This document shows, piece by piece, positions 26 to 23,647 of a stretch of 64,000 nt of DNA. The position numbers and the translations under genes are program-made. Position 1 is the stretch's first letter, and each line of letters opens with the position of its first letter. This DNA is from Boswellia sacra (taxonomy: Eukaryota; Streptophyta; Magnoliopsida; Sapindales; Burseraceae), in the NCBI GenBank assembly GCA_013180625.2, contig SNVD02016092.1:1215411-1279410 (forward strand), written 5' to 3'. Below the pieces are notes generated by a model that was given only the letters and a program-made list of their open reading frames with translations, ran no database searches and had not been told where the DNA came from.

Positions 26-1161
26 ATGAACAAAACACTGACTTCTCAGGTAAATCCTATAACTCCCATTCCTTCATATGTTTCTCCTCCACTTTTTCCT
101 AGTAGATTTGCAAAATCGAAGGAGGAACAAGAACAAGAAATCCTGGAAACTTCTCACAAAATCGAGGTAAATATACCACTTCTGGATGCTATCGAGCAAG
201 TACCTCATTATACAAAATGTCTCAAGGAGTTATGCACCAGCAAAAGAAAGTTAAAAAGAAATGAGAAAGTAAGTGTGGGGGAAGATGTTTCAGCTGTATT
301 GCAAAGGAAAATTCCTCCAAAGTGCAAAGATCCAGGTACGTTCACCATGCCATGCACCATTGGTAAAACCAAGTTTGAAAGAGTTATGTTAGATTTAGAA
401 GCATCTATTAACATCATGCCATATTCTATTTATGCTTCTTTAAATCTTGGACCTTTTACGGAAATTGGTATTACCATTCAAATTGCTGATCATTTTAATG
501 CATATCCAAAAGAGTTGTGGAAGATGTGCTTGTGCAGGTGAATCAATTGGTTTTTCCAGCAGACTTCTATGTCCTTAAAATAGAGGATGAGACATCTCCT
601 AATCCAACACCGATTCTTTTAGGGAGGCCATTCTCGAAAACTGCTAGAATCAAGATTGATGTTCATTATGGCACTTTGACCATAGAGTTTGATGGCAAGG
701 TGATATGTTTTAATATTTTTGAGGAAATGAGGTACTCTAATGACTTACATTCTGTTTTTGCAGTTGACGTTATTGATTATTTGCCACAACAATGTTTTGA
801 GTTAACTCGCAAGAATGGAGTGGATGTTGCTATTAGTGAACACATAAGGATAGAAAGTTTCAAAGAACCAAGAAAGCTGATACAAGTGTCTAAAGAAGTG
901 GAGGAAGCTGTGACAAGCTTGGATGAGACTATAGCTATCACCACAAATAGGTATGATGTTTCGTACATTGAATTGCCTTTATCTAATGAGAAACTTCTTC
1001 CTTCTGTGATGAAAGCCAATACCTTGGAGCTTAAGTCACTTCCAGATCATTTGAATCATGGATTCTTGGTGAGAATGATACTTTGCGAGTTACAATGGAA
1101 ATGGGCCTTGCACGAATACAAGAAGATAAACTCGTCCGAATACTTACAGATCACAAAATAG
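26..1161 (+). pseudogene. Gag-Pol protease region (retropepsin), frameshifted
   Basis: Retropepsins are aspartic proteases that cut the Gag-Pol polyprotein. Two overlapping reading frames (26-541 and 517-1161) together cover a protease-like region. The active-site segment reads MLDLEASINIMPYSIY, where the family has D-[LT]-G-A; the glycine is replaced by glutamate, which should abolish activity. The second frame carries the flap and C-terminal part, with the ILLGRPF segment expected late in the domain. The frame changes near 520-530, within AAAAGAGTTGTGG, consistent with a lost base. Element B has a matching region at 14612-15457 whose active site is intact (DLGAS). The ORF at 26 begins inside the polyprotein, so its ATG is not a natural start. 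Confidence 0.85.
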
Positions 1162-1298
1162 CTATTGAGTGGACAATTGTTGAAATCCAAGGCCCATCCA
1201 TATGCATTGACCGTATCTTGTTAGAAGAGGGATCCAAGCCCATTAGAGAAGCACAACAGAAATTGGATCCTCCCATGATGGAACCAACGTCGGGCTGA
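1083..1298 (+). pseudogene. RT N-terminal fragment at the edge of a large pol deletion
   Basis: The segment contains a short stretch (CIDRILLEEGSKPIREAQQK) that matches the region just before the RT fingers in Athila-type Pol; element B has the corresponding residues near 14220-14160. It lies in a third frame relative to the protease pieces. After the MM residues near 1277 the sequence jumps to a short tail (EPTSG, stop) and the post-pol motif GGGAGGCAACCC. RT palm, RNase H and integrase are therefore missing, a deletion of about 2.7 kb compared with B. Other elements would have to supply these functions. Confidence 0.8.
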
Positions 1299-1742
1299 GG
1301 ACGTTAAACCAAGCGCTTATTGGGAGGCAACCCAATGTTTTTGAAAAATAAAAAAAAAGAAGAAAAGAAAAATAAAATGAGGTAATAATGATCGATTTTT
1401 GTGTCTCAAGGAGATTCCTTTCGTAGGCCATCAAATTGATCAGGTTTTATCTCTCTTTGCCATCTGTCTCATTTGTTTTTATATTTTTTTACTTGTTTTT
1501 GACTTTTGTTTGCTATTGTGTTGTTATCTCTTTTATGTGTCTGTAGTTTCGTTTTTGCTCTTTTCTTTTCCTTTCTTTTGTTTAATTTGATTACTCTATG
1601 CTTTGAGCTCATTTGTGCAGCAGCTTGTGGAAACATCCAAACGGAAGTTAAAGTCATTCGCCAAAGGTTTGAAACGTGCATATCTTGGAGAAAAACAAAC
1701 CCGATCGCATTATCGGTAATATCTCTTCTTTTCTCCTCTTCA
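1299..1742 (+). other. Leader between pol remnant and cysteine-rich gene, with hairpin and putative 3' splice acceptor
   Basis: The inverted repeat TTGGG-AGGCAA-CCCAA spans 1320-1335. From about 1440 to 1610 the + strand is strongly pyrimidine-rich and ends in TTTGTGCAG at 1612-1620, a good match to a plant 3' splice site. A spliced subgenomic RNA, as used for env genes, would give the downstream ORF a short leader. Splicing is inferred; the donor would lie outside the window. No ORF in this interval resembles a protein I know. Confidence 0.5.
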
Positions 1743-2292
1743 ATGGATGCCGATATCTTTCTGTCGAACCTTCGTAAATATTTTCCTTCACTTCCTCAAA
1801 ATGCTGTGTTTAAAATTTATAAAGTACGGATGACTAGACTTTGGGTTGATGCTCTTAAATGTGCCTGCTGATATCCGATGGCTTATCGAAGCCAAGGTGA
1901 GATTGTCCGGTGAGCCGGACATTAATCTCGCAAAATACATGCCTGGTCTAGGAAAGAGCTACTACGCCAAGAGGCGAAGAGCGAAAAGGTTACAAGTATG
2001 TTATAAATGTGCTAGATGGAATTGTAACCAGACTTGTCGTTCATTAGGTTTTGCGTCCAGGAATAGAGAAGATAAACTTTCATTTATTAAGAATGGTTTG
2101 AGTAATGAGTCGCTGGATAATGTTTTGTTAACTATCGAGACACATTCTTGTGGACTTGTTCAGCGTGAATTGCTTAATCTATGGACACAATTTCGTGATG
2201 AATTGCAATATTATCGTCTAGGGAATCTGACTAAAAACGACCCTGTTTGCCAGTTTATAAGAAAACTGGATGGGACGCAAATCCCCGACTAA
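1743..2292 (+). pseudogene. Cysteine-rich basic protein, viral nucleic-acid-binding-protein-like (element A copy, one frameshift)
   Basis: The ATG at 1743 opens MDADIFLSNLRKYFPSLPQN, matching the start of the B copy. A net one-base frameshift near 1840 moves the rest to the frame starting MLLNVPADIRW. The length from ATG to stop is 550 bp, against 549 in B. The core has a helix-like segment (PADIRWLIEAKVR), a basic stretch with Y-A-K-R-R-R-A-K-R-L, and cysteines spaced CX2CX4CX3C, followed by F-I-K-N-G and a tail with HSCGLVQ and FIRKLDG. Basic S-x-Y-A-[KR]2-x-R-A followed directly by C-x2-C-x-R is the hallmark I associate with the cysteine-rich nucleic-acid-binding proteins of carla-/allexi-type plant RNA viruses (Pfam Viral_NABP), several of which affect RNA silencing. 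That link rests on motif resemblance only. A CCHC nucleocapsid is less likely because no histidine sits in the finger. Confidence 0.55.
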
Positions 2293-2524
2293 TAGAAGGC
2301 GTTTCAGCCGTTACTGGACGTAAAACCAGAGGAAGATGTGAGCCACAATCACAACTACTTGTATATTTGAATGTGGGTTGTTGTTGTCGAATTTTATTTC
2401 TTTCTTGTTTCGTTTGATCTGATTATCAATGTTGTTTTTGTGTTGTTGGTGTTTGTTGATTTTGTTTGTTTTAATTTCAAGTTTTCTTTTTGACAAACCA
2501 TATGACTACCCTATGGCATAAGTA
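2293..2524 (+). other. Spacer after the cysteine-rich gene
   Basis: The block at 2300-2370, containing GGACGTAAAACCAGAGGAAG and TGTGAGCCACAATCACAACT, is conserved on the minus strand in B at about 10710-10785, so the non-coding spacer is also shared between the elements. A T-rich tract follows at 2385-2490. No ORF is recognised. Confidence 0.5.
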
Positions 2525-2725
2525 CACGTGGGAGACAAGTGTGGAGGTTTTGTCAACCTCCACCGAAAGTGTATCTCTATTTTTTATGCTTCACGTGGGA
2601 GACAAATGTGGGGGTTTTGTCAACCCCCGCCGAAAGTGTATCTCCATTTTCCATGCTTCACGTGGGAGACAAGTGTGTAGGTTTTGTCAAACCTCGCCGA
2701 AAGCATATCTCATTTTTTCAAATGT
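2525..2725 (+). repeat. Three tandem 67-bp units, each with a short hairpin
   Basis: Units start at CACGTGGGAG at 2525, 2592 and 2659, exactly 67 bp apart. Each contains a stem-loop with loop TTGTC or TGTC: 2541-2563 (9-bp stem GTGGAGGTT/AACCTCCAC), 2608-2630 (GTGGGGGTT/AACCCCCGC, with one T-G wobble) and 2679-2694 (6-bp stem AGGTTT/AAACCT). Between units 1 and 2 an A-T pair becomes G-C, a compensatory change. The array sits between the cysteine-rich gene and LOG and is absent from B. Small open frames here merely read through the repeat. Confidence 0.8.
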
Positions 2726-2947
2726 TGGGGCGATAAATCTGCATCGAGCAACCTTCCGCTCCCCCCCCCCTCACGAAATTATGTCCCAGTTGTTTACTTC
2801 TTTTTTGTCAAATTCGAGAGTTTTACGTGTGTATTATCCATTTTTGCATATTCTCAAATGTCATTTATAACTGTCTTGCACTTGAATGCATAGACCTAAC
2901 GTTTTTTTTTACATCATTTCTTGTACAAGATTAGAGCACTTGTAGAA

Positions 2948-3599
2948 ATGGAGAAAAACACCAATTCGGCGATTCCGCAATATATGCGTATTTTGCGGAT
3001 CGCAATTTGGTAAAGATGGAGAGTTTTCCACAGCAGCTCTTGATCTTGGTAGGACATTAGCTGCGAGGGGTATTAATTTGATTTATGGAGGGGGTAGTCT
3101 TGGGTTAATGGGGTGTGTGTCAACAGCTGCATCCCTAGGAGGGAGCAAAGTTCTCGGCATTATCCCGAAACCATTAGCTGTACGAGATATCATAGGCAAC
3201 ACAATCGGGGAAGAGTTACAGGTCTCTAGTATGCATGAGCGTATTGCAAATATGGTTGTCAGTCTGATTGCATTTAAGCTTTACCCGACGTGGTTATGGT
3301 ACATTAGAGGAGATATTTCAAATCACTCTTGGGCACAGCTAAACATCCATCGGAAACCCATTGGTTTGTTAAATGTCAATAATTTTTTTGATGGTTTGTT
3401 GTCTTTTCTTGATCAAGCTGTAGAAAAAAATTTTATATCACCATCAGCGAGGCAAATCCTTGTTACAGCTTCAACGGCAGGGGAGTTAATTGACAAACTA
3501 CAAGAATTCGTCTATTCGCCTGACCCAACAACAGCTCGGATTGATTGGTTTGGAGAAGGCAATAAGAGGCGTAAACTGGATTTAACACTCCATCTGTAA
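2948..3599 (+). pseudogene. LOG: LONELY GUY-type cytokinin phosphoribohydrolase (element A copy), frameshifted in the catalytic loop
   Basis: LOG enzymes release free-base cytokinin from cytokinin riboside 5'-monophosphate. The frame from 2979 reads NICVFCGSQFGKDG, then YGGGSLGLMGCVS, the SSMHER segment with the conserved arginine, SWAQLNIHRKPIGLLN and a C-terminal PDPTTARIDW tail. The hallmark PGGxGTxEE loop is out of frame: about 3282-3332 is read in a shifted frame by compensating indels, though the codons for YGTLEE are visible in another frame. The probable ATG at 2948 is also out of frame with the body, and an in-frame TAG lies at 2943. No introns interrupt it, whereas plant LOG genes have several, so it was copied from spliced RNA. 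The C-terminal tail recalls a LOGL10-like paralogue, a weak assignment. As it stands it cannot encode an active enzyme. Confidence 0.9.
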
Positions 3600-5590
3600 T
3601 CTCTAAGCCTGCTACGTTGCTTCATTTTGTTTGCTTTTCCTTCATTGTGGTTATTTGAGTTGAGTTTTTTTCAGGTTGTTCACTTTCACCCCAGGTAATA
3701 TTGTTTTACCTAATCACTTGGATTTTAGGTGATGGCTTAAAAAAGTCAAGTTTCTGAAAAGCATCTCGGATTTTCTTGTTAACTCCATAATTGGCTGAAT
3801 AGGAGGCTAACGTCTAACTTTTTTAGACTCAATTCTAACTGACTTGTTTGTGTTTGCTGATTTGTTGGACTTTATTATTTTCTGAGTAAGTTTAGTTTTA
3901 TGTAATTTCGAGTTGTTGTGTGTTTTTGTCTTTATCAGTTTCGATTCGAAAAATAAAAAAACATTGTGGAAAAACCTGAGAATGGCAGAATATGGGCGTC
4001 GTATCGTAACTCTGAAACGAATTCTCTTCTCAGTAAATATGAGTTGTTAATGTCATGTGTTGCAGGTGTCTGTTTCTTGTTTTGTTCTTTCATAATAAAG
4101 GTATATAGGCTGGAAACCTTAAGTCTGCGGGCTACTGGTCCTAAGGACTGTTGAAATATACAATCTTGACTCAGGTGTAACAACGCCACGTACCTCTTTT
4201 CTTGCATTTTGTGGGTCGATGATAAGATAATGATGAATTAAGAATAACTCTTGGAAAATGATAAATGATGCATGGATCTGTGTGCTTGAAATGTTTATTG
4301 GTTTTCGCTTTGCTTTTGAATCCTTGCGCAACATTGAGCACTGAGCTATTATCACTGAGTTATTTGTTCACTTAGAGAAAGTTTATGTAATTTAAATGTT
4401 TCTTCAGATTTCAATGAATTCTAGAACTTGTTTGATGGTCACTCGAGGCGAAATCCTAGACTGTGCAACATTGGGGCAATGATTTAGGCCATCTTTGGAC
4501 CGTTTGAGCCTTAATAGCCAACCTTGACTAAAATTGATCCCTAGGTACCCCTTTGAGCCTTTGTAAGCCTTTTTCTTTGTTAACTCACTAAAAGATTTCC
4601 TAACCTCAAAAGAATTTATTCCAAACAGTTTATCCCTTACCTATGAGCATGTAGATCATGTCACAAATGTAATATGTCTGAGCTCATGTTCTGGTTTTGG
4701 GTAAGTAGATGAGGTTGGGATGTGTCATGCACGCAATGCAAGTGACCCGTTTTATTTATGTTTGTAAACAAAAAAACAAAAAGCAAAAAAAAAAGCAATT
4801 CTGTACCTTATAGTCCACGGTAGCTACACATTGAGGAATGTGTTGTTTAAGTGTGGGGGAGGGGAAGTGTTAATAAACAAAATGAAAAAATCGAAAAAAA
4901 AGGAAAAAAAAGATACACAAAAGAGAAGAATAAGATGATCTATACCCTTAAAGTCTTCTTGTAAAAAGGAATGAATAACAACAAAGCGTGGGGTGTAGTT
5001 TTTCTTGGTTGTCTACCGCTAACAACAAAAAGATTGAGTCGTTATAAATAAGTTGGGGGAGTAACATGGTGAATTGAAATAAAGTTGTGTTATAGGGTTG
5101 AGCTCTACATATTCTTGAATGATTTATGTGTTTGTGGGTGATTTGAGCCAAATTATTATCCTTTATCATACCTTCACCCAAGCCAAACGTTACAAGCTTA
5201 ATAAAGCCCTACTTGATCCTTGGTGTTGTGCATGTCTACATTAATGGAGAGTGACTTGAAAAGCAGGCCTATGGAGTTTATTTATACACACATCTTCAAT
5301 ATTAAATATGATTCATTTTTATGCATAAACTCATCCGGGTTACAAGTGATTAGTTGAGAATGGCTCTACACACACACACTTGAGGAATTGAAATGAAGCG
5401 AAACTAATCTTTAAGATAAAATTCTTGATCAAGTGCATTATTTTGAAGTTTTCCTTGGGGTTATAATTAAGTACAATCTTTGAGGCCTATTTGCAAGATG
5501 AAGCATTTGTGTGTTTTAATTTTTTGTTGATTCTGTTTCGGTTTAGTTTGATTTCATATTGTCGTAGTTGCTCGAGGACTAGCAAAGTCT
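3600..5590 (+). other. Element A 3' untranslated region
   Basis: No protein is recognised. TTTTTTTCAG at 3667-3676 resembles a splice acceptor and CAGGTAAT at 3693-3700 a donor. AATAAAG at 4093-4099 could be a poly(A) signal. The stem-loop ACACATT-GAGG-AATGTGT lies at 4826-4843, with a counterpart in B at 9676-9695. A purine-rich run GTGTGGGGGAGGGGAAG at 4851-4867 looks like a second PPT. Parts of 4480-5400 are similar to 56060-56830 inside element D2. Confidence 0.6.
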
Positions 5591-5605
5591 AAGTGTGGGG
5601 GAATT
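5591..5605 (+). other. Polypurine tract of element A
   Basis: AAGTGTGGGGGAATT lies directly before the LTR start TGATAAG, the position of the primer for plus-strand DNA synthesis. It defines the 5' edge of the LTR at 5606. Confidence 0.85.
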
Positions 5606-7059
5606 TGATAAGTGTCTATTTATATATCATTTTCATATCAATTCGTCCATGTTTCTTTGCTATTTTCCTTGGTATTTTATGTTTTTGTGTGGTTTTGATG
5701 TTTGTAGGAGTTTTGGAGCAACTTGCACAAAAATGGAGTAAAACCCTTCATTTTCACCTCTGCTAGTCAACCATCTTCTCGGATTTAATTGTATTGATAT
5801 ACAATGAACCCGATGACATATCATATACCGTTGAAAAGCTCTCGAAGTCTACTTTTTGGAGAAATTTACGGTTTATGAATCCATTCAGTGTACCGAAAGT
5901 TGTAATCAAAACAGTGGGAGAAGTATAGAAATGTAATTCCACACATCACTGTAGCATGTATAATACGGGACACTGTAGCACGTTACTGTAGCAGAGTATT
6001 TAAACACATTTTAGGGTTTTATTTTCATAACTGAAAGAGGGGAGAACGTGGTGGAGGCTGCAGCTCTGGAATTCTTTCATCTCCTGGAGTTCTTGAAGGA
6101 GAAAGGAAGCTTGGAAAGAGGAAGAACTACAATCCAAAGAGAAATACATCAAATTTGCTAAGTTTTTCCCTTCCCTTTCATTTTCTGGAATGTCTCCATG
6201 TGTATTGTATTTACACGTTCTTTTAAACTAGTTGCTAACTGACATCTGATGTGGTTGAGGTGATTTCTAAGCCCCTGTATTAGGTTTTTGTAGTAGATTG
6301 TGTAAGGGAACTTGTTCATCCAATTCTTCATTGAAAGTTGCTGTATTCTACCTATATTTAAAGCTTATGATTGCTTGCTGGATTGTATTTGGGTGGCCAA
6401 CTGAATATAATCTGGATATTGTCTATTGCTAGACTAGAAAATCTTGATCCGTAATTGTCTTGAATTTCTAATCATTAGTAGCAAAATTGTGATCAGAGAT
6501 TGCAATTGGAGAATACAACCTAAGTTAAATAATCCGAGCTTGTGTGTTTATTGCTTAGATAAACCTATCTTTCTTATTGTAATGCATCCATTGAATTAAA
6601 TTTAGAGAGCTTGTTCTAGGTTGTTTAATGGATAGAGATTAAATAAAGAGCTTGTTTTATTTAACAACAAGTAAGGAAAGATTGGGGTAATAGAGCTTGT
6701 TATTATCTACGGTTGATAACTTCAATGCTGTAATTAGATGACAATTCTACAATTAATTCGCAAAATCCATATCTTGTGGTAAAGAAGGATTCCTTAACCA
6801 GCTTTCTCCCATTGATTTTTCATTCAAATTTACTTTCTGTTTTGTTATTCTTTACTTGCATTCTTATTTCATTTAGTAAATCAATCAACAAAAATCTACA
6901 AAAAAATTTATATTTTCCCTTTCCCCCTGTTTAGTTTATATCTGTTGCCTGTGGGAAATCATACACAATTCAATTAGAATCAATCCTTGTGGGAACGATA
7001 TCTTACTTATCACTTTATTACTTGTGCGACTAGTATACTTGCTAGTTTCGAACGCATCA
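5606..7059 (+). repeat. 3' LTR of element A (about 1454 bp)
   Basis: The LTR starts TGATAAGTGTCTATTT after the PPT and ends ...GAACGCATCA, giving TG...CA ends. GTATTTAAAC at 5997-6006 is a possible TATA box, followed by TTTTAGGGTTTTATTTTC. The partner LTR is outside the window, so age and target duplication cannot be read. Only 18 bp (7060-7077) separate it from the LTR of element B. The right end is chosen from the CA dinucleotide and could be off by a few bases. Confidence 0.8.
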
Positions 7060-8433: not shown

Positions 8434-8443
8434 CACCCCCCAA
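8434..8443 (-). other. Polypurine tract of element B
   Basis: On the minus strand TTGGGGGGTG abuts the LTR start TGATGAACAC. Element C has the same arrangement at 63034-63043. Confidence 0.85.
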
Positions 8444-9871
8444 CTAGCTCATTGCTAGTCCCTAGCAATTAAAGCGTTATTATTTAGAAGTGATTTATAG
8501 AATTTCACATCCAAGGTGGTCATTATTACACTCTCCTTGATTTTATCCAAATAAACAAACTCTCAACCAATTATTATTATTATCTTTTTATGATCGAGTG
8601 TACCCCTTCGGCTCAAGATACTATAAAAACTTACTTTTTGTGCTACAGGTCCAACACATTGACTATAAGGCTTATAGAAAGGAAGCAGTATGGTGTCTAA
8701 GTATACTTCGTTAAGGCTAAAAACCTTAGTAAGGGAGCATTTATTCATTACATAGCATATATCTATATATCTATATACATTATATATTCTCTCTCTTTTT
8801 TTCTTTTTTTTGAAAAGAATGATCTTTAACCCATGTACTGGGCCTTTAGGCTGATGACCCCCAGACCAGCTGGCATACGGGCATTAGGTGTATACGACAA
8901 CCCTTCGAGAAACTTAACAATCGCGTTGCCGATGCTTTATTTTGCTTAAAAACTTGTGGATAGTGCAATGTTCAATCCCATTAAGCTTTCTCCTTAATCC
9001 ATGTAGCGAGCTTTGGGCCAATAGCTCCCAAACTAGTTGGTCTTAGGGTATTAGGTGTTGAGGCACCCCTCGGGCTTAATTGCCCGTATTAAGGAGGCTA
9101 CGAGACCAAACTTATCCACAATTGCTTTCTCTTCCTTTTTTTTTTTGCTTTTATTTTTCATATTTTCATTCATTTTTTTTAACTTTCCCATTCCTTTTGT
9201 TGTTATCCTAAACAAAACAAAAGAACTCAAATATTGCAATATTTCATTTCGCCGCCCACAATCATGCATCAAGGTATGTGTGTGTGTGAAGAAAGGTTCA
9301 ACAATACTTACTTAATGAGCACATAAGCACATTGTTTATTAAATGATGAGGTTGTGAGAGTTCATAGATTTGAATAATTCAAAGTGAAATGAATAAGACC
9401 TCCTTGTTATAAAATTCAAAAATCAAGACTAAATAATATCAAGTTAGCTAAAATGAGTTCACAAAATCAAAGTAAAATGACAAATTGGTTAGAATGGGTT
9501 ACAAGAGTTCAAACTGGTCCTCCATTCTCTGCCATTCCTGACCCAGAATGCGTCTCGAGAGGATTTAAACTCCTTACGCCGCACTCTGAATCTAATTACT
9601 AACTCGGTTTTTTTTTTAAGAAAAAGAAAATTCAAGACACACTTATTTCTAATATCCTTCCCTCCCAACAAAATGAAACATTGTCCTCAATGTTTAAATG
9701 TAGAGAGATAAAGTATAAGAGACATTACCTGAAGCTTTTGTTATTCAAGAGAGATGACCTGAAAGACTCATAAAATAAAATAAAATAAAATAAAGGACAA
9801 GAAAAAAAAAATTACAAACGGAGATTCAGATCCAATTTGCACTTTTTGTTTTGCCCTCCTACCCAATTAAT
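8444..9871 (-). other. Element B 3' untranslated region with internal duplication and hairpin
   Basis: No protein is recognised. A block resembling CCATGTAGCGAGC(C/T)TT with the AGACCAG(C/T)TGG and ATTAGGTGT motifs occurs twice, at about 8830-8940 and 8998-9110; C has the same pair at 63390-63490 and 63558-63660. AAACATTG-TCCT-CAATGTTT at 9676-9695 is a perfect 8-bp stem; on the minus strand its loop is AGGA, like the ACATTGAGG hairpin of A. A short (TAAAA)n run lies at 9771-9796. Confidence 0.65.
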
Positions 9872-10462
9872 TTAAGTACTAGTTGGGTCAGGTTCATACT
9901 CAACTTCTTGTAATATGTCAAGTAACTCACCAGCAGAAGTGGCAGAAACAAGGATCTTTCTCGCTGAATGAGGGATAAAATTTTGTTCCACAGCTGCATC
10001 AACAAAACTTATCAAAGGATCAAAGAAATTTTTAACATTCAACAAACCTATGGGTTTTTCGTGGAGATTCAGTTGGGCCCAAGAGGCAATTCGAAAAATT
10101 TCTTCAAGAGTGCCAAAGCCACCTGGTAAAGCAATAAAGGCATCTGAATTGATGAGAATATGTGCCATGCGTTCATGCATAGAGGAGACCTGTAACTCTA
10201 TCCCAACCGTTTTTCCAACGATGCTTTCTATGGCCAAAGCTCTAGGAATAATTCCTAAAACTTGACTACCTCCTATATGTGCGGCTGTTGACACACAACC
10301 CATTAACCCGAGGCTACCTCCCCCATAAACCACATGAATCTTTCTTTCAGCCAGTAGCCTACCAAGATAGTTTGCTACTTCTACAAACTCCTCACTTTTA
10401 CCCGGTCGAGATCTGCAGAATACACATATCCTTTGGATTCAACGTTGTGAAGTTCCCTCCAT
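9872..10462 (-). pseudogene. LOG: LONELY GUY-type cytokinin riboside 5'-monophosphate phosphoribohydrolase (element B copy), one premature stop
   Basis: From the ATG at 10462 the frame runs 196 codons to a stop at 9872, close to the usual LOG length of about 180-230 aa. It is open except for TGA at codon 8 (10441-10439). Domain landmarks on the single frame are ICVFCRS near residue 12 (the family has CGS, so G to R), YGGGSLGLMG near 45-55, SSMHERM with the conserved arginine, and DAFIALPGGFGTLEEIFRI with the complete PGGxGTxEE loop that binds the nucleotide and holds the catalytic glutamate. SWAQLNLHEKPIGLLN follows. There are no introns, unlike nuclear LOG genes, so capture was through RNA. 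A start downstream of the TGA would lose only the N-terminal strand. It lies between the cysteine-rich gene and the PPT, so it belongs to the retroelement rather than being a host locus. Confidence 0.92.
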
Positions 10463-10777
10463 GTCTATGCAACACTCTAACTATGTGTGAAGAAGAGAAC
10501 AAGACATGTGGTATTTATGGACTGCAAAAAGTTATGCTAATGATGATATCTATCTAGGTAGCTCAGTTGTTTGTTGAAAAAGTTGACAATAATGCATAAA
10601 AATTCAAAAGATGATGAAATAAGACACCATAAGTCAGACAAAAAATACAAATTAAAAAATGACAGCTATGAGGTATTAAAATTCAAAAATGATGGCACCC
10701 ATGCATATGTACAGGTAGTTGTGACTGTGGCTCACATCTTCCTCTGGTTTTATGTCCAGAAACGGCTTAAACACCTT
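10463..10777 (-). other. Spacer between cysteine-rich gene and LOG in element B
   Basis: The 315-bp spacer shares the block containing GGACATAAAACCAGAGGAAG (minus strand, about 10735-10765) with A. It lacks the 67-bp hairpin repeats of A and is otherwise A-rich. No ORF is recognised. Confidence 0.5.
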
Positions 10778-11326
10778 CTATGAGTTGGGGATATGCTTCC
10801 CATCTGGTTTTCTTATAAACTGGCAAACAGGGTCGTTTTGAGTCAGATTCCCAAGATTATAGCGTTCCTGCTCATCTCGGAATTGTGTCCACAAATTAAA
10901 ATTTTCACACTGCACAAGTCCACAAGAATGCATCTCAAGAGTCGTTCGGATATCATCTAAAGACTCCTTACTCAGTCCATTCTTGATGAATTGTAGTTTA
11001 TCCTCTCGATTGTTAGACAAATATCCTAAGGAGCGGCAACACTTGTTACAAGTCCATCTTGCACATCTGGGACAAACTTTTAACCTTTTCGCTCTTTGCT
11101 TTTTGGCGTAAGAGCTTTTTCCCATACCTGGCATGTGAGAAACAAGATTATCTGAAAATTCATAAGAAAATCGAACCTTGGCTTCAATTAACCATCTTAC
11201 TTCAACGGGCATACCCTTATGCATCAACATCCTTATTCATTCTGCGCGAGCTTTGTAAATTTTAAGCAAATCATTTGGAGGAAGAGAGGGAAAATGTTTG
11301 TGTAGATTTGAAAGAATGGTGTCCAT
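10778..11326 (-). pseudogene. Cysteine-rich basic protein, viral nucleic-acid-binding-protein-like (element B copy), one premature stop
   Basis: The ATG at 11326 starts MDTILSNLHKHFPSLPPN and the frame continues 182 codons to 10778, broken only by TGA at codon 30 (11239-11237). After the break come MPVEVRWLIEAKVRFS, GKSSYAKKQRAKRLKVCPRC and a CX2CX4CX2CC finger, then LQFIKNGLSKESLDD, an HSCGLVQ motif and an NLGNLTQNDPVCQFIRK tail. Against copy A, the first three finger cysteines, the YAK...RAKRL stretch and the FIKNGLS segment are invariant, and length differs by one base. The basic patch running into a zinc-finger-like cluster resembles viral cysteine-rich nucleic-acid-binding proteins, and KKQRAKRLK could be a nuclear signal. 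The C-terminal 50 residues match nothing I know. It lies 124 bp downstream of the pol stop and 315 bp before LOG. Confidence 0.55.
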
Positions 11327-11450: not shown

Positions 11451-12640
11451 CTAAAAAGGATCGACTAAAGCAATGGACTCTTTATTTTGGTCAAAATTTT
11501 CAAAGAATGGTTTTAACCGTTGTCCATTAACTTTAAACACATGACCATTCTTTGGGTTCTCAATTTCAACTGCTCCACGAGGGAAAACATTTTTAACAAT
11601 GAAAGGCCCAGTCCAACGTGACCGAAGTTTACTAGGAAATAAGTGCAACCTTGAATCATACAAAAGAACTTTTTGTGAAGGTTCAAAAGATTTTCTAATA
11701 ATAAATTTGTCATGAAAAACCTTCATTTTTTCTTTGTAGATTTCAGAATTTTCATAAGCCTCATTCTTGATTTCTTCAAGTTCACTCAGTTAGAGTTTTC
11801 GTAACTTGCAAGCATCATTCAAGTTTGTGTTAAATGTTTTAATGGCCCAATAAGCTTTATGTTCAATTTCCACCGGCAAGTGACAAGGTTTTCCATAAAC
11901 TAGTCTATAAGGAGACATTCCCAATGATGTTTTAAAAGCAGTTCGATAAGCCCATAGTGCATCATTAAGTCTTAAAGACCAATCTTTACGATTTGGGTTA
12001 ACCGTTTTTTCTAAGATCTGTTTTTTCTCCCTATTAGCTAATTCAACTTGTCCACTTGTTTGTGGGTGATAAGGTGTAGAAATTTTATGGGTATTCCATA
12101 TTTCTTCATTAAAGTTTCAAATGGTTTGTTACAAAAATGTGTACCCCCATCACTAATAATGGCTCGAGGAATTCCAAATCTACACAAGATATTCTCTTTC
12201 AAGAATTTGATAACTATTTTGTGGTCATTGTTTCGACACGGAATTGCCTCGACCCATTTGAAACATAGTCTACTGCAACAAGAATGTACACAAAACCAAA
12301 TGATGATGGAAAAGGTCCCATAAAATCAATACGCCCAACAATCAAAGGATTTTCTACAACTTGAGGAGATAGAATTGGCTTGTGTATTCAAAGGGGTCAT
12401 TTATCATTCGTCTTCATATGCCTTGACTTTCCACCATCTGTTCTTGTATCAGTACCAACTTAATATCCTTGTTGATCAATTTTCTCACACTCCGTCTCTC
12501 GTGGACAACATGCATGTGCCTTATCTTCCTTAAATAAGGTGGGCCAATAAAATCCACATTGTAAGATCTTAGCAGCTGTTTATCTAGATGAAAAATGTCC
12601 TCCACATGCTTCAGAATGACAAAAGTTAATGACACTACTT
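11451..12640 (-). pseudogene. Integrase of element B, decayed
   Basis: Integrase joins the cDNA to the chromosome. The frame at 12635-12414 holds a degraded zinc-binding region (HVEDIFHL, then LRKIRHMHVVH where the CxxC should be). Between about 12400 and 11730 the minus strand can be read in pieces as the DDE core: IDFMGPFPS, a GIPRAIISDGG segment and [18 protein letters not shown]. The frame at 11726-11451 is the C-terminal part, with [21 protein letters not shown] and the closing NGQRLKPF typical of Athila-type Pol. Frameshifts and stops separate the parts, so no active enzyme is encoded. Confidence 0.85.
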
Positions 12641-13148
12641 ACCTCATTGTCGGGTATGCATCTTCTTATTATTTGGTCCGGACAATATTTTAACAGATAT
12701 GGGTCATCCCAATAAAAATTTTTCACCTCGGTTAAAAATTTCCTTTTGTCTTGAGCATTCCAATGAGGTGGCATTTTTTCTGTTGCAAGAAAATTTACAA
12801 TGTTAGCAAACCAAGGTATAGTAGCAACGGAAAATAAAAACTCATCAGGAAAAGAATCATTGATAGGTGAAGTTTCAATTAATGTCTCTGTCGTTAGTCT
12901 TGAAAGATGATCAGCAACGACATTTTCGGCTCCTTTCTTATCCTTTATTGTAATGTTAAATTCTTGGAGCAATAAGATCCACCGTATCAATCTAGGTTTT
13001 GCATCCTGTTTAGACATTAAATATCTCACAGCTGCATGGTCAGTGTAAACAATCGTGGGAGAACCAATTAAAGAAGAACGAAATTTGTCCAATCGCAAAT
13101 ACTACTGCAAGTAGTATTTTTCAGTGTGGGTGAATTCATTTGCGCTCA
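12580..13148 (-). pseudogene. RNase H and connection domain of element B
   Basis: RNase H removes the RNA strand during reverse transcription. The frame at 13098-12580 shows the domain end: [20 protein letters not shown], then [33 protein letters not shown], the junction common to Ty3/gypsy RNase H. The rest of the frame leads into the integrase N-terminus, ending in [12 protein letters not shown] with a histidine pair. The early part of RNase H lies in the preceding ORF (DASDYAVGAVLGQRKEGK). A frame break separates the two near 13100-13150. Confidence 0.85.
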
Positions 13149-14274
13149 TTAAAGTCCTACTTGCATAGTATATGGAACATAAGGCTTACCTTCCTTTCTT
13201 TGTCCTAAGACAGCACCAACGGCATAGTCACTTGCATCACACATCAATTCAAAACGCAAGGACCAATCAGGAGATTGCATAATTGGAGCAGTTGTTAAAA
13301 GTCCAATTAGTGTATCAAAGGCATTTTGACATTCTTGAGTCCATTCAAATGAAGTATCTTTTATTAAGAGGTTACAAAGAGGTTTAGATATAGCACTGAA
13401 ATTTCTTATGAACCTCCTATAAAATCCAGCATGCCCTAAGAATGAACAAATCTCTTTAACTGTTTTTGGTGGAGGCAAATGAGAAATTAATTCCACTTTT
13501 GCTTTATCCACTTCAATTCCTTTAGAAGACACCACATGACCTAAAACAATTCTCGAAGTGACCATATAATGACATTTTTCCCAATTCAAAATAAGACCTT
13601 TTTCTACACACCTTTTTAGGACTTTTTTCTAAATTTTCAAGACAATTATCAAAAGAGTTTTCAAAGACAGTTAAATCATCCATGAAAACTTCTAAACAAT
13701 GCTCAACCATGTCACTGAAAATGCTTAACATGCATCTTTGAAAAGTGGCTGGGGCATTACAAAGTCCAAAAGGCATTCTCCTAAATGCAAAAGTGCCAAA
13801 GGGGCACGTGAATGTGGTCTTTTATTGGTCTTCAAGTGCAATGGGAATTTGATAGTAGCCTGAGTATCCATCAAGAAAGCAGTAGTAAGGGTTTCCTGCT
13901 ACTCTTTCAAGAATTTGGTCAAGGAAAGGTAAGGGAAAATGATCTTTTCTAATGACAGCATTTAATTTTCTATAATCAGTGCACATCCTCCAACTAGATG
14001 AGACACGAGTTGGCAATGATTCCCCCTTTTCATTTTTAACAACTATAATGCCAGATTTTTTAGGTACTACTTGTGTAGAGCTTACCCACTTACTATCAGA
14101 AATAGGATAGATAATTCCCACATCAAGTAGTTTGAGAACTTCAGCCCTAATGACCTCTTTCATGTGTGGATTTAATCTCCTTTGAGGTTGTTGAGATGTT
14201 TTGGCATTTTCCTCTAAATGTATTCTATGTGTGCAAATTAAGGGGTTAATGCATTTTATATCTTTAAAGTCCAC
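13149..14274 (-). pseudogene. Reverse transcriptase of element B, with stops and a frameshift
   Basis: Three ORFs cover RT. 14274-13822 holds the fingers: HRIHLEENAK, KWVSSTQVVPKKSG, the SSWRMCTDYRKLNAVIRKDHF motif and FLDGYSGYYQIPIALEDQ with the first catalytic aspartate. A stop at 13819-13821 interrupts it; the same frame resumes at 13776 with MPFGLCNAPATFQRCM and the catalytic FMDDLTVF box. The frame then shifts near 13600, and 13589-13149 carries the thumb (LGHVVSSKGIEVDKAKVELI, then the FLGHAGFYRRFIRNFS segment) and the start of RNase H. Despite its decay, this is the best-preserved pol domain of element B. Confidence 0.9.
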
Positions 14275-14611
14275 CCAATTGCATTTTTATGCCTTTTAAT
14301 CACTTCTAGCAACTTACCTTGTTGCTCGCATGTGAGGGATGAAGAAATTACCACCGAATATGTTTGATTCTCCCCAAGATATGCATATTTCAGTCTTTCA
14401 GGCAAGGGCTTCAATTCTAACTTGGGGAGCTTCATTTTCCTTGCTTTTTCCTTTGCCCCAATTCTTCAAAATCTTGATTGGATTTGAGCTTTTCCATCAC
14501 CTGTGCACAATCCAATAAAGAACATATATCAGAAAGATCAGACTCTAGTTCTATGCTTGATTCTAATGAATTCACTAGACAAGTTTCCAAAGGGTCAGAA
14601 GAACTCCCTTT
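14275..14611 (-). other. Protease-RT linker of element B
   Basis: Short fragments corresponding to the linker before RT are visible on the minus strand, but several stops make a continuous reading impossible. No separate gene is seen. Confidence 0.5.
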
Positions 14612-15457
14612 TTAGATGTGACCTTCCACAATAGATTCGATCATATTAGCCTCCTCAATTTCATCTTCTTCTTCATGTGGTTGTTTGCACATATTGAAAA
14701 CATTAAGTTCCAATGTCATGTTCCCAAAAGATAGCTTCATGACTCCATTCCTGCAATTAATCAAAGCATTAGAGGTAGCTAGAAATGGACGCCCTAAAAT
14801 GACAGGAATTGAATTACATACTTCCACTGGTTGTGTGTCCAAGACAATAAAATCCACTAGGTAAATGAATTTATCGACTTGAACTAACACATCTTCTACT
14901 ACCCCTCTTGGTACTTTAATTGATCTATCAACAAGCAAAAGAGTCACAGAAGTCGGTTTTAACTCACCTAAATTGAGTTTCTGAAAAATCGAATATGGAA
15001 GCAAATTCACACTAGCACCAAGATCAAGTAAAGCTTGTTCAATTTTATGGTCTCCAATAACACATAAAATTGTAGGACAACCTGGATCCTTATATTTCAC
15101 TGTATTATTGTTTTGAAGAATAGCACTTACTTGCTCGGCTAGAAAGGCCTTCTTTTTCACATTCAGTTTTCTTTTCACAGTGCACAAGTCTTTCAAAAAT
15201 TTTGCATAAGAAGGTACCTGTTTGATCACATCAAGCAAGGGAATGTTGACCTTTACCTGTTTGAAAATTTCAAAGATTTTAGAATTGTGAGTTGGCTTCT
15301 TTTGTGTGGCTAATGCTTGAGGAAATGGAGGCACAGATGAGGATTTGGTTTCCTCTTCGCTAGGTGTTGGTTTGGCAACCTCTTCCTGCCCTTTAGAGAT
15401 CGATTCTTCTTTCTTTCTCACAAGGGTTAGGAATATGTTTTTCAACAACCTTACCAT
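14612..15457 (-). pseudogene. Protease region of element B Gag-Pol
   Basis: The 281-residue frame begins with a hydrophilic linker, then a segment IFKQVKVNIPLLDVIKQVPS shared with A (EVNIPLLDAIEQVP). The retropepsin active site follows at about residues 142-150 (ALLDLGASVNLLPYSI), intact here but mutated in A. PVILGRPFLATSNALI marks the late part of the fold. The C-terminus is acidic (EEEDEIEEANMIE). It is in a different frame from the upstream gag piece at 15683-15393, so a frameshift separates gag from protease. Confidence 0.88.
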
Positions 15458-16943
15458 TGCGAAGGGTCATGACTGACTTAGCTTGGTCAAAATAATGGTT
15501 ATTTGAACTCCCTGCATTTGAGTTAGATTGATCTTTGGGGTTTTGCAATGTTTGAGAAGGAAATTTTCCCTTGTCTTGGATGCTAAATGTAGATGCAAAT
15601 TTTGCAAGAGTTTCTGACAAATTTGCTAATGTTTGAGCAGTTTGGCTATTGAAAGTCTCTTGCTTTGTAATGAATGAATGCAATGTTTCTTAAAGGTCAT
15701 TCCTAGGAGGAGGAGCATATGCATGATCATGAGAATTTTGAAAATTTTGTTGTGCTTGAAAAGGGACTTGTGAAGATTGTGCATGATTGTCATTTTTCCA
15801 GCTAAAATTTGGATGATTTCTCCAACCAGGAATGTAGGTTTGTGAATATGGATTGTGATTTGGCCTTTTGAAAGTGTTCAAGGCATTGGCTTCTTCATGG
15901 AGACATTCTCTAAAGGCAGGCAAAGTTGGGCAATCATCAGTAGAATGGTCATTGTCATCACAGATGTTACAGACATTTTCTTGAATAGATTTCAATTTAC
16001 CACTCTTTTTCATCTCTAAAGCCTCGACTTTTCTACCTAGGGATGCAAATTTGGCTTGAAGGTCATGGTCTTCCCTAAGGTTGTAAATGCCTCTATTGGA
16101 TGTCGAGGCTGGGGCCTTGCCTGGTACCTCATAGGTGCTAGCAGTGTCCCAATTTTGTGCCTTTTTTGCCAAGGAATCTAGGAAGTCAAGTGCTTTCTCA
16201 GGGTCTTTTTCTTTAAATTCTCCATTACACATTAATTCCACTAGTTGTCTATCTTGAGGTGTTAACCCTTCATAGAAGTGTGCAACTATTCTCCAAGTTT
16301 CAAACCCATGGTGAGGACAGGTATTAAGTAGTTCCTTATACTTATCCCAACATTGGTAAAGGGTTTCTCCTTGTTTTTGAGAGAAATCAGTAATTTGTCT
16401 TTTAAGAGAATTTGTTCTATGGGTAGGAAAAATTTTTTTTCAAAAATTGTTGTTTCATCTCATCCCATGAACTGATGGAATTTGACCTCAAATTTTGTAG
16501 CCATGTTCTAGCTTTATCTTTTAAAGAAAAAGGAAAAAGCTTTAATCTAATGGTGTTTATGCTACAATTTGGGTCAGTGTAGGAGCTACATACCTCTTCA
16601 AAGAGTTTCAAGTGTGAATATGGGTTCTCCATGTCAAGGCCATGAAAAGTGGGTATAAGTCGAACAAAACTTGGTTTGAAATTGAAATGGATTGAATCTG
16701 GAGGAGAAACTACACAAGATGGTGCACTAGTCCTTACCGGATTCATGTAGTCTTTGAGGGTTCTTCGTTGGTTTTGATCATTTTGTTGCGAACGGTTGTC
16801 CCCTTCATCCGTGAATATTTCCTCATGATTGTCGCCATGTTTTCTAAGGAAGATGATGTTTTTCTAACAAGTCTACCACTAGATGTTCGTGACCAAATTT
16901 TCATGCAAGAAAGAGAGAAGAAGGGAGAGGAAAAGATGAACAC
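15393..16943 (-). pseudogene. Gag of element B, broken into several frames
   Basis: Gag forms the particle and binds the RNA. Continuing from RTLKDYM upstream, 16746-16417 carries NPVRTSAPSCVV, the FHGLDMENPYSHLKLFEEVC segment and LKLFPFSLKDKARTWLQNL, the conserved gypsy Gag core. A frameshift follows in the T9 run at 16432-16440. The frame at 16241-15690 holds a zinc-knuckle-like segment with cysteines and histidine (CNICDDNDHSTDDC), then a Q/N/P-rich stretch. A stop near 15687 separates 15683-15393, which ends in a region leading to protease. The true start is unclear because the N-terminal frame is interrupted upstream of 16850. Confidence 0.85.
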
Positions 16944-17018
16944 TCAAAAAAATAAAAAAATTTAGATCTAAGATGAGAAAAGAGAATACTTACAATTTTG
17001 CACGCCAATTTTTACCTT

Positions 17019-17035
17019 CCCCGGCAACGGCGCCA
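17019..17035 (-). other. Primer-binding site of element B (tRNA-Asp)
   Basis: The minus strand reads TGGCGCCGTTGCCGGGG, complementary to the 3' end of plant tRNA-Asp(GUC), which includes CCCCGGCAACGGCGCCA. It lies 6 bases inside the 5' LTR. A tRNA-Asp primer is typical of Athila-type elements. Confidence 0.9.
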
Positions 17036-17041
17036 AAAACT

Positions 17042-18472
17042 TGACACATCCGAAAAAGGATTGTCTCCCAAGTATAGGAGTGTCGAAGTAATAAACCCGG
17101 TAAGACCGGGGTCGATCCACAAGGAAGGGAATTTAAGCGTTACAAATTATAAGATAAGCAAATGTGATATGAATGATTCAAAGAAATAACAAGAGAATAT
17201 CAATAAATATGTAAGATGGTAGGCGGTATTACCGACCATTCAAATATAAAACAAAAAGCAAGAGGAGGTAAAACCATCCATGGAAATAGGTGGTATAACC
17301 AACCATAGTAAATTAAAGAACAATTTCATAAGGTGGTAGAACCTACCATAGTAAATAAAATAAAAAGTTCATAAACAATAGAATAATTAAAATACAAGAG
17401 GAACTAACACAATAACAATGAAGGCTAAGGTTAGGGGATCCGCCCTTGATAATTCAAATAAGGATACTTAACCCATTTTAGTTATATGAGTTATATTTGT
17501 TTCATCACCAATATTTATACCACTTCTTGTAAATGGGTTCAAGCATCCAATGTGTCAATAATCATATGTCTACAACAAATCAAGGTTCCTAACTAGATTC
17601 GTGTCGGTAAGGAAGAACCATACATCATCTAGAAAGGATCCAAGCATTTGATGTGCCAAGGATTGTCGAAAATGGATCAAGACCTCCACTTTACGAGTGG
17701 TGTCAAGATTGATTAAGAAATTAAATATAATCATATTGAATAAACATTATAAGATTAAGATTATTAAGCACATATTAAGGGTTAGAGAATCCTTATTCTC
17801 ATATCAAGGGTTTCACCCTTTCACCTTAGCAAAAGAGAAATTAGAAGAACATTATAATAGAAAGAAAATAAAATGCAAGAAAAAGGAAATTCATTAATAA
17901 CATAAACACACAAAACACAATACAAGATCCTAGCCAAAGCCAAAATGTTCCAGCCAAGGCCAAGATGCCCTAATGGGTCACAAGGCACCTCTATTTATAG
18001 ATACATCCAGGGGCAAACTTGTCAAATTACAAGGGCATAATTGTCAAATATTAGTTGTAAATATCTTTGACAATTGGGATCATTAGGCACCGACTTTGAC
18101 CATCAATTTTGACATCGAAATGTTGTGAATTTTAATCACATGTCTTCATGAAAGTTGTAGATATTTCTCTCAGCTTTCTAGAACATATTGATTTGCATAA
18201 TTTGGATACATATTTTGAGAGATACGGTCTAAATACTGAGGCCTGGTCAGACTAGGCCGAGACTGTAGATGGGTTCATTTCAAGCCTAATTTTGGTCCGC
18301 TAAGAGCCCGAAGTTGATGATGCTTGTGAAATGCAATCTTGTAAAAAATTGAATCAGCTTTTCAAAACATTAGGAATTGCACTATTTTGATCTATAAATA
18401 GAGAGTTATGCCCATTTTACCGAACCTGTAACAAAACCAAAATTAAGAGGAATTAATTCCAAAGATGCAAAT
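17042..18472 (-). repeat. 5' LTR of element B, left part (long form)
   Basis: The LTR starts TGACACATCCG at 17042 and is interrupted at 18472 by element F; it resumes at 24174. It carries an extra block at about 17213-17380 made of 43-bp imperfect repeats, each with a GGTGGTA...ACC(A/T)ACC inverted motif. This block is shared with element C but missing from B's own 3' LTR. CTATTTATAG at 17991-18000 is a minus-strand TATA box. Confidence 0.9.
18469..18472. other. Target-site duplication of element F (AAAT), left copy
   Basis: AAAT precedes the left LTR of F and is repeated at 24170-24173 after the right LTR. The uninterrupted site GATGCAAATGCTAC is preserved in the other LTR copies near 8331-8341 and 62932-62942. 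Four bases are shared; a fifth does not match. Confidence 0.8.
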
Positions 18473-18992: not shown

Positions 18993-19006
18993 TCCTCCCC
19001 CACTTA
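18993..19006 (-). other. Polypurine tract of element F
   Basis: On the minus strand AAGTGGGGGAGGA lies directly before the 3' LTR (TGTCACAGCC). It primes plus-strand DNA synthesis. Confidence 0.9.
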
Positions 19007-23614: not shown

Positions 23615-23635
23615 TTGCTCTTGTGCTCGAACCGT

Positions 23636-23647
23636 GCTCTGATACCA
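23636..23647 (-). other. Primer-binding site of element F (initiator tRNA-Met)
   Basis: The minus strand reads TGGTATCAGAGC, a perfect 12-base complement to the 3' end of plant initiator tRNA-Met, two bases inside the 5' LTR. Confidence 0.95.

What the first reader, a model, noticed from the sequence alone, without database searches (positions are those of the whole stretch)
1743..3599. A two-gene cassette (viral-type cysteine-rich protein + LOG) carried by an Athila-like retrotransposon
Seen: between the pol scar and PPT of A lie a 182-aa cysteine-rich ORF and an intronless LOG ORF; B has the same pair at 11326-10778 and 10462-9872, in the same order and orientation relative to its own PPT. 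The spacer between them is also partly conserved. Known: Athila elements usually have an env-like ORF here; LOG activates cytokinins. Inference: one capture in a common ancestor produced a retroelement lineage with an accessory module that may modify host physiology (cytokinin) and defence (silencing). I know of no description of such a combination.
Basis: partly seen in the sequence, partly recalled or inferred. Interest (0 to 1): 0.93.

Follow-up and report, generated by a model that had tools for sequence, protein, structure and literature searches.

The report
Retrotransposons carrying two accessory genes
Several families of plant retrotransposons in this genome carry, behind their own genes, a gene resembling a small RNA-virus protein and a plant gene for switching on the hormone cytokinin; both look kept by selection, so the elements may manipulate their host, which remains to be tested.

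Summary
Elements A and B share, by blastn, only the pair CRP (cysteine-rich protein) plus LOG; their LTRs do not match. In the window all four genes are broken, but in the window's own genome two CRP queries each scored 150 places (their cap), mostly with open frames. The cassette lies inside Athila-type elements: INT-CRP-LOG, with LTRs 99.3% alike and 5-bp target duplications in the two copies examined to both ends (one of these has lost most of CRP). CRP falls in the Pfam families of carlavirus nucleic-acid-binding proteins. LOG keeps its catalytic motifs in most homologues. dN/dS between families is well below 1 for both.

(2) CRP also occurs without LOG. (3) CRP and integrase histories conflict, so the 3' module seems to be swapped between families. 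(4) Two A-type copies read lack RT/INT yet keep CRP. (5) A near-invariant 72-nt folded RNA element follows CRP.

Best explanation: an accessory module that blunts host silencing (CRP) and raises active cytokinin (LOG). This function is inferred, not shown.

The parts
26..1161 (+). Element A: protease-region remnant (two overlapping open frames) ahead of the pol deletion
   Evidence: ORFs; same region in sister copy L070; no Pfam match for 517-1161, so 'protease' rests on reading the sequence
1743..2292 (+). Element A: CRP gene, viral-NABP-like, one frameshift (open part 1846-2292)
   Evidence: Viral_NABP 4.2e-10, Carla_C4 3e-5; tblastn; 150 of 150 scored own-genome places without a stop in the 148 aa
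2293..2372 (+). Element A: conserved noncoding element behind CRP, three predicted hairpins
   Evidence: alignment A3 of 9 sequences, 17 pairs, none broken; motif only twice in window
2525..2725 (+). Element A: three 67-bp tandem repeats in the CRP-LOG spacer
   Evidence: overlapping repeat hits in L070/L071
2948..3599 (+). Element A: LOG gene, intronless, damaged (open part 3078-3599)
   Evidence: Lysine_decarbox 4.9e-20; tblastn 2952-3572
5590..5605 (+). Element A: polypurine tract
   Evidence: read, next to the LTR start
5606..7059 (+). Element A: 3' LTR (TG...CA)
   Evidence: read; its end matches the stretches in front of sister copies L070/L071
7078..8433 (-). Element B: 3' LTR
   Evidence: 94.6% over 1096 bp and 88.0% over 166 bp to its 5' LTR; 89-96% to LTRs of the copy on contig C4756
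8436..8450 (-). Element B: polypurine tract
   Evidence: read
9815..10462 (-). Element B: LOG gene, intronless, stop near the start and premature stop at 9872
   Evidence: Lysine_decarbox 2.1e-36; At2g37210 6.3e-48; tblastn 10462-9815
10700..10777 (-). Element B: conserved noncoding element behind CRP
10778..11326 (-). Element B: CRP gene with one in-frame TGA (open part 11230-10778)
   Evidence: Carla_C4 4e-6, Viral_NABP 5.5e-5; tblastn 11326-10784
11451..12921 (-). Element B: RNase H end and integrase region, frames broken
   Evidence: tblastn with the L001 protein; RT_RNaseH 2.3e-10 on 12580-13098
13822..16241 (-). Element B: gag (by position, not tested with Pfam), protease and start of reverse transcriptase, in pieces
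   Evidence: ORFs; Asp_protease_2 3.8e-4 and RVT_1 4.9e-5, both below Pfam's cut-off
17018..17035 (-). Element B: primer binding site TGGCGCCGTTGCCGGGGA
   Evidence: read; same type in three sister elements
17042..18472 (-). Element B: main part of the 5' LTR; its first part lies at about 24170-24269, split off by a later element

Best explanation
Several Athila-type LTR retrotransposon families of this plant carry a 3' accessory module: CRP, then a short folded RNA element, then LOG. SHOWN: it is a standing part of LTR elements, some recently inserted; it is high-copy; both genes show purifying selection between families; CRP occurs without LOG in an element of another genome; CRP and integrase histories conflict. 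INFERRED: CRP was acquired first (from, or sharing a source with, a flexivirus nucleic-acid-binding protein); LOG was added later from a spliced host transcript; the module then moved between families by recombination of co-packaged RNAs. INFERRED mechanism: CRP, a basic zinc-finger-like protein, dampens small-RNA silencing of the element and/or acts in the nucleus as a transcription activator, as shown for a carlavirus relative; LOG raises active cytokinin in the cell and favours dividing, meristem-like tissue where new insertions reach the germ line. The folded element probably helps express or select the 3' part of the RNA. My probabilities: anatomy above 0.95; CRP acts against silencing about 0.45; LOG is an active cytokinin enzyme about 0.6; both serve the element together about 0.35.
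For: Anatomy. Copies and frames (hand counts from the tables; each search scored only its best 150, which favours intact copies): CRP query 133 of 150 places without a stop, A-type CRP 150 of 150, LOG query 118 of 150. Selection: CRP dN/dS 0.12-0.29 in the comparisons between families (A-B 0.21, 95% 0.12-0.34), LOG 0.11-0.38 (L009-L015 0.36, 0.26-0.56), all upper limits below 1. CRP family: 36 of 37 members of A1 match Viral_NABP and 33 of 37 Carla_C4 at E 0.01; of 39 Foldseek hits of the better model 28 are flexivirus proteins (virus grouping recalled) named as nucleic-acid- or RNA-binding, silencing suppressor, '15kDa' or hypothetical, each weak on its own. A carlavirus relative, CVB p12, is a nuclear transcription activator and a cytoplasmic silencing suppressor; with it GFP siRNAs fall and 21 nt replaces 24 nt as the main size (PMC7588395, part 1 of 3 read). 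LOG motifs: PGGxGTxxE in 107 of 120 homologues, [MI]xxR before it in 102 of 120. Module swap: integrase puts L001 nearest the B family in 1000 of 1000 bootstraps in 4 of 4 triples; CRP supports that in 0-5 of 1000. g1-g2 synonymous difference is 0.78-0.85 for INT but 0.40-0.46 for CRP and 0.43-0.49 for LOG, while g1-g3 (L073) differ alike: 0.12-0.13, 0.14-0.16, 0.10; an open stretch of 289 INT codons gives 0.83 for g1-g2. RNA element: A-B 6 of 72 and A-L001 5 of 72 differences while CRP synonymous sites differ by 0.57-0.60.
Against: No expression, enzyme or silencing data. Open frames can reflect youth of the copies. Within family g2, LOG ratios are higher (0.40-0.77; L022-L017 0.77, 0.47-1.24) and so are CRP ratios with window B (0.33-0.43), though CRP pairs without B stay at 0.08-0.23. 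LOG is broken more often than CRP: 17 of 30 loci L002-L031 have a LOG frame of 211-216 aa against 28 of 30 with a CRP frame of 181-182 aa (the loci were chosen for high CRP scores). CRP is not always kept: the young copy on C1912 has lost all but its last 34 residues and keeps a LOG without a stop. CRP's cysteine spacing (C-x2-C-x4-C-x3-C in 111 of 120) is not that reported for a carlavirus (C-X2-C-X9-C-X4-C, PMC3689765, passages). Models of CRP are poor (pTM 0.29 and 0.41); no viral Foldseek hit reaches E 0.001 and the PDB gives nothing. CRP-LOG distances correlate over 8 pairs (r 0.80, 94 of 5000 permutations) but not without one outlier (r 0.36, 735 of 5000). INT columns of L015, L017 and window B include damaged stretches, which inflates their distances. 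g1's CRP groups with unnamed proteins P0001/P0003, not with B's, so where the swap took place is open.
Confidence: 0.5

Rival explanations
1. CRP serves the element's own particle or RNA (nucleocapsid-like chaperone, packaging or movement), not host silencing; LOG is a hormone enzyme or a passenger.
For: CRP sits in the env-like 3' place (recalled); it is basic with a cysteine cluster; it is followed in all 9 sequences aligned by a near-invariant folded RNA element; it is kept in two A-type copies that lack pol. A listed abstract says that a plant-virus CRP interacts with the coat protein in virion assembly (PMC11213338, search listing only).
Against: The closest Pfam and fold relatives are silencing suppressors or nucleic-acid-binding proteins of flexiviruses. 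Sister elements still have long gag-like and pol frames.
Confidence: 0.3
2. Neutral passengers: transduced sequences carried along, intact only because the copies are young.
For: Two copies have LTRs 99.3% alike; A-type CRP places are nearly identical (95-99%); LOG is often broken (32 of 150 with stops; 64 of 150 A-type frames shorter than 216 aa); one young copy lost most of CRP.
Against: dN/dS below 1 between families whose CRP dS is 0.5-1.5; 73 of the 120 listed CRP homologues are 181-184 aa long, some in named plants of several orders (orders recalled).
Confidence: 0.15
3. The pair is a host or integrated-virus locus into which two elements inserted by chance.
For: Nothing beyond the viral and host look of the two genes.
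Against: 29 of 30 CRP loci have LOG, 27 of 30 INT; 30 of 30 LOG loci have CRP; matching LTRs and 5-bp duplications outside the cassette in two copies.
Confidence: 0.02
4. No module swapping: CRP and LOG simply have slower synonymous change than integrase, and the INT/CRP conflict has another cause.
For: Only three INT lineages (g1/g3, g2, L001) were compared; the RNA element next to CRP shows that RNA-level constraint exists here.
Against: g1-g3 pairs change alike in INT, CRP and LOG; bootstraps are near-unanimous in opposite directions.
Confidence: 0.2

Closest known systems
Gypsy elements with LOG-like extra ORFs (YgdH/LONELY GUY; Citrus, Populus; Steinbauerova et al. 2011 as cited in PMC9289625)
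   Same: Gypsy-type element with an extra LOG-type domain (PMC9289625 section 12). That the 2011 elements are Athila-like with a LOGL4-like 3' ORF is recalled; I did not see that paper
   Different: In PMC9289625 'nucleic acid binding' and 'carlavirus' occur 0 times; sections other than 12, the abstract and found passages were not read
Carlavirus/flexivirus cysteine-rich nucleic-acid-binding proteins (Pfam Viral_NABP PF05515, Carla_C4 PF01623; e.g. CVB p12)
   Same: Pfam scores above cut-off, basic run before a cysteine cluster, 3'-proximal gene
   Different: About 182 aa against 62-225 aa, mostly 91-144 aa, of the named viral fold hits, other cysteine spacing, in an integrating retroelement; function untested
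Phalaenopsis Ty3/gypsy elements with a captured AlkB RNA demethylase (PMC9289625)
   Same: Plant gypsy element that fixed an extra protein proposed to matter in host surveillance of TEs (abstract)
   Different: Different protein, orchid genus Phalaenopsis, demethylase activity shown in vitro; here two genes in several families, nothing shown in vitro
Env-like ORF of Athila elements
   Same: Same place between pol and the 3' LTR (recalled)
   Different: CRP is a small protein with a cysteine cluster; membrane segments were not looked for

Membership tests
Athila-lineage LTR retrotransposon | Two LTRs with 5-bp target-site duplication | tested here: met
   Copies on contigs C1912 and C5674: LTRs 99.3% alike, ATGGT/ATGGT and GGTGG/GGTGG. 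Window copy B: LTRs 94.6% alike but no matching duplication
Athila-lineage LTR retrotransposon | Primer site TGGCGCC... of the tRNA-Asp type (type recalled) | tested here: met
   B 17035-17018; C4756 and C1912 the same; C5674 one base different
Athila-lineage LTR retrotransposon | gag-PR-RT-RH-INT order | tested here: met
   ORFs and Pfam for B, protease and RT below Pfam's cut-off; long frames in L063 and L067 with INT. Not met for A-type copies L070/L071, which lack RT/RH/INT
Athila-lineage LTR retrotransposon | RT/INT tree placement within Athila | not tested
   No reference set of lineage proteins was used, so 'Athila-like' rests on primer site and layout
Viral_NABP / Carla_C4 (Pfam) | Profile score above Pfam's own cut-off | tested here: met
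   A 40.4 against 23 and 24.3 against 20.9; B 23.7 against 23 and 27.1 against 20.9
Viral_NABP / Carla_C4 (Pfam) | Basic motif beside a zinc-finger-like cysteine motif | tested here: met
   107 of 120 and 111 of 120 homologues; viral motif as described in PMC3689765 (passages)
Carlavirus CRP proper | Cysteine spacing C-X2-C-X9-C-X4-C as given for potato virus H | tested here: not met
   Here C-x2-C-x4-C-x3-C, so it is filed as a relative, not as a carlavirus CRP
Viral silencing suppressor | Suppresses RNA silencing | not testable with these tools
   Needs a leaf assay
LOG (cytokinin phosphoribohydrolase) | Lysine_decarbox profile with PGGxGTxxE and the upstream arginine | tested here: met
   107 and 102 of 120 homologues; 14 and 16 of 17 long-frame own-genome LOGs
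LOG (cytokinin phosphoribohydrolase) | Releases cytokinin base from its nucleotide | not testable with these tools
   Needs purified protein
Host LOG gene | Groups with plant host LOGs | tested here: inconclusive
   40 LOGs (35 of the 120 database hits, 4 own-genome, window B) fall on one side of Arabidopsis chains 2a33 and 1ydh (SH-aLRT 91), but only these two host LOGs were in the tree; the search for the plant's own LOGs did not complete

The most novel reading that the evidence does not exclude
Plant LTR retrotransposons of the Athila type have assembled, and trade among themselves, a virus-like accessory module: an RNA-virus-type silencing suppressor / transcription activator plus a cytokinin-activating enzyme behind a structured RNA signal. 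With it an endogenous element fights small-RNA control and steers host cells toward division, as a virus or gall-former does, and even copies that lost their own polymerase keep the suppressor gene.
Probability: 0.3. Interest if true: 0.94.

Novelty: new variant of a known kind. Interest (0 to 1): 0.8.

Why it matters
Extra genes in plant retrotransposons are common but mostly unexplained. Here one extra gene belongs to a protein family with known anti-silencing and transcription-activating members and the other to a known hormone enzyme, both conserved across element families and present in young insertions. That makes the question 'do plant retrotransposons actively counter silencing or reprogram their host?' directly testable with two small proteins. 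It also points to gene sharing between RNA viruses and retrotransposons (direction unknown), and warns that some database LOG genes (Populus 'LOGL10', Primulina 'LOG3-like') group with element LOGs.

Tried and rejected
Viral contigs: three scans (CRP protein, CRP alignment, RNA-element motif) gave no relatives. Trimmed CRP core search for viral homologues: 120 of 590 hits are listed and none bears a virus name, so no virus sequence could be put into a tree. Rfam: no match in window 1250-3000. First CRP model too poor to use. Foldseek against PDB: four hits, best E 8. CRP-LOG co-divergence: not robust to dropping one pair. Target duplication of B: not found. The idea that database LOG hits include host LOGs: the highest identity to At2g37210 is 57.5%, so they look element-type, but only the Rhamnella pair (consecutive gene numbers) and four pairs of equal contig length tie a CRP to a LOG outside this genome. 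Not answered: the plant's own LOG genes and the genome-wide count of the RNA-element motif.
Full report
WHAT IS THERE. The window holds two Athila-like elements next to each other: A on the + strand (its 5' part lies outside the window) and B on the - strand. Both carry the same pair of genes in front of the 3' LTR. By blastn A and B match only over CRP with the stretch behind it and over LOG; their LTRs do not match. So two different families carry one module. In the window all four genes are broken (frameshift in A's CRP, damage in A's LOG, stops in B's CRP and LOG).

IT BELONGS TO ELEMENTS. The window's genome is held (638.6 Mb, 7431 contigs). A CRP query scored its 150 best places, 133 without a stop (hand count); a LOG query 118 of 150; the A-type CRP 150 of 150 over its 148 aa; the A-type LOG (first 127 aa as query) 144 of 150, with frames of 216 aa or more in 86 of 150 rows, four of which hold a stop. 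These are best-scoring subsets, so the shares are biased upward and totals are lower bounds. Of the 30 CRP loci cut out, 29 have a LOG match behind CRP and 27 integrase before it (L025 has neither, L018 and L031 no INT within 1.5 kb). In the same 30 loci 28 have a CRP frame of 181-182 aa and 17 a LOG frame of 211-216 aa. Of 30 LOG loci, 30 have CRP before LOG and 29 the integrase end (not L053).

LTRS. I fetched pieces before and behind four copies. C5674: LTRs 99.3% alike over 1415 bp, duplication GGTGG/GGTGG, primer site with one base different; CRP open, LOG with one stop. C1912: LTRs 99.3% alike over 1618 bp, duplication ATGGT/ATGGT, primer site; LOG full length without a stop, but of CRP only the last 34 residues are left, which speaks against CRP being always needed. 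With a rate of 1.3e-8 per site and year (recalled) both insertions are about 0.3 million years old. C4756 belongs to B's family (89-96% to B's LTR); its similarity behind the 3' LTR runs on into internal sequence, so it may be a tandem arrangement. C4250: the upstream piece was too short, only a 188-bp repeat was seen. I name four groups: g1 (e.g. L009), g3 (C1912, L073; near g1), g2 (L015, L017, L022 and window B) and A.

CRP. It matches the Pfam families Viral_NABP and Carla_C4 above their cut-offs in both window copies and, at E 0.01, in 36 and 33 of the 37 members of alignment A1. C-x2-C-x4-C-x3-C is found in 111 of 120 listed homologues and a basic run before it in 107. AlphaFold models are weak. 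Even so, of 39 Foldseek hits among viral proteins 28 are flexivirus proteins named nucleic-acid- or RNA-binding, silencing suppressor, '15kDa' or hypothetical, five have no name, one is closterovirus p23 and five are unrelated; the best E is 0.039. Homologues number 301 at E 0.001, 120 listed. Named hosts in the lists are Xanthoceras, Acer, Rhamnella, Populus, Striga and Parasponia. I saw no monocot among the named rows of these two lists; unlisted rows were not seen.

LOG. B's LOG is closest to plant LOGs in the PDB (At2g37210). Element LOGs are full-length in one exon in the genome search, so a spliced transcript is the likely source (inference). In a quick tree 40 LOGs of element type (35 of 120 database hits, four own-genome copies, window B) stand apart from two Arabidopsis LOGs (SH-aLRT 91); with so few host LOGs the exact origin is open. 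Rhamnella CRP and LOG have consecutive gene numbers, and four contigs of 2.1-8.7 kb have the same length in both homologue lists, which suggests but does not prove the pair there.

SELECTION. NG86 dN/dS between families is 0.12-0.29 for CRP and 0.11-0.38 for LOG with all upper limits below 1. Integrase as a control is 0.12 (g1-g3) and 0.08 (L001-g2, dS 2.15); its other comparisons are saturated in synonymous sites. Within g2 LOG rises to 0.40-0.77 and CRP with window B to 0.33-0.43, as expected for decaying copies, while CRP among L015, L017 and L022 stays at 0.08-0.23.

HISTORY. L001, a plant contig hidden in a bacterial MAG, has an intact integrase and CRP, then directly the 3' region, and no LOG. 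So CRP can stand alone and LOG is probably a later addition (loss of LOG in L001 is not excluded). Integrase places L001 nearest to B's family in 4 of 4 triples (1000 of 1000 bootstraps), while CRP places g1 (or g3) nearest to B's family (995-1000 of 1000). Synonymous differences between g1 and g2 are 0.78-0.85 in INT but 0.40-0.46 in CRP and 0.43-0.49 in LOG, whereas g1 and g3 (L073) differ alike in all three, 0.10-0.16. Some g2 integrase columns come from damaged stretches; an open stretch of 289 codons gives 0.83. DNA similarity of g1 and g2 runs from about 140 bp before CRP to at least 430 bp past LOG, with a gap between the integrase end and that point. I read this as exchange of the 3' module between families. 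The CRP tree is poorly resolved and puts g1 beside unnamed P0001 and P0003, so I do not claim where the exchange happened.

NON-AUTONOMOUS COPIES. L070 and L071, two A-type copies, run from the LTR end through a gag piece (and the protease in L070) straight to an intact 184-aa CRP; RT, RNase H and integrase are missing. A itself has the same gap. Their LOG is frameshifted (L070) or stops after 127 aa (L071). Only 2 of the 150 scored A-type places were read, so I cannot say how general this is.

RNA ELEMENT. Directly behind the CRP stop lies a stretch with 0-9 differences in 71-72 columns among 9 sequences of four own-genome groups and L001. RNAalifold gives three hairpins, 17 pairs; none is broken in any sequence, one pair changes on both sides in one sequence and three change on one side; 13 pairs never vary and say nothing. 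Rfam has no match in window 1250-3000. It is present without LOG (L001), so it belongs to CRP or to the 3' end of the RNA.

FUNCTION. Inferred only. CVB p12, a carlavirus cysteine-rich protein, activates transcription in the nucleus, suppresses silencing in the cytoplasm and lowers and shifts siRNAs (PMC7588395, part 1 of 3 read). [quoted passage not shown] the paper is not held). LONELY GUY proteins regulate cytokinin activity (PMC9289625); the reaction is recalled. Together they suggest resistance to silencing plus a push toward cell division. The main rival is a structural or packaging role of CRP.

NOVELTY. LOG domains in LTR retrotransposon consensuses of Citrus and Populus are in print. 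For the CRP half six searches and for LOG or extra ORFs four of the open library gave no paper on CRP in a retrotransposon by title, abstract start or the passages read; most subscription papers are not held, so this is no proof of absence.

Noticed in passing
61504-64000: A third element of B's family begins here (LTR 96.4% to B's 5' LTR, and 61844-64000 is 89.8% to 7243-9439) and runs out of the window; its cassette would lie just beyond the end.
   Followed up: partly
18464-24169: Another gypsy-type element with 97% identical 529-bp LTRs and long gag-pol frames (e.g. 20516-23614, 1032 aa) sits inside B's 5' LTR.
   Followed up: partly
2293-2372 and 10700-10777: Near-invariant noncoding element with three hairpins behind each CRP; one compensatory pair change in L001.
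   Followed up: yes
2525-2725: 67-bp tandem repeats in A's CRP-LOG spacer, also hit in sister copies L070/L071.
   Followed up: no
L001 1-3330: A plant retrotransposon contig is filed in a Candidatus Nomurabacteria MAG (DAIEQH010000041.1): contamination.
   Followed up: yes
L064/L065 (contig C4756): Similarity behind the 3' LTR of this B-family copy continues into internal sequence, as in a tandem or recombined element.
   Followed up: no
58591-59375 and 53290-53640: Overlapping self-similar stretches (72-96%), apparently tandem arrays.
   Followed up: no
P0182, P0219, P0185: Database proteins named LOGL10 (Populus) and LOG3-like (Primulina) group with element LOGs, so they may be retrotransposon genes annotated as host genes.
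   Followed up: no
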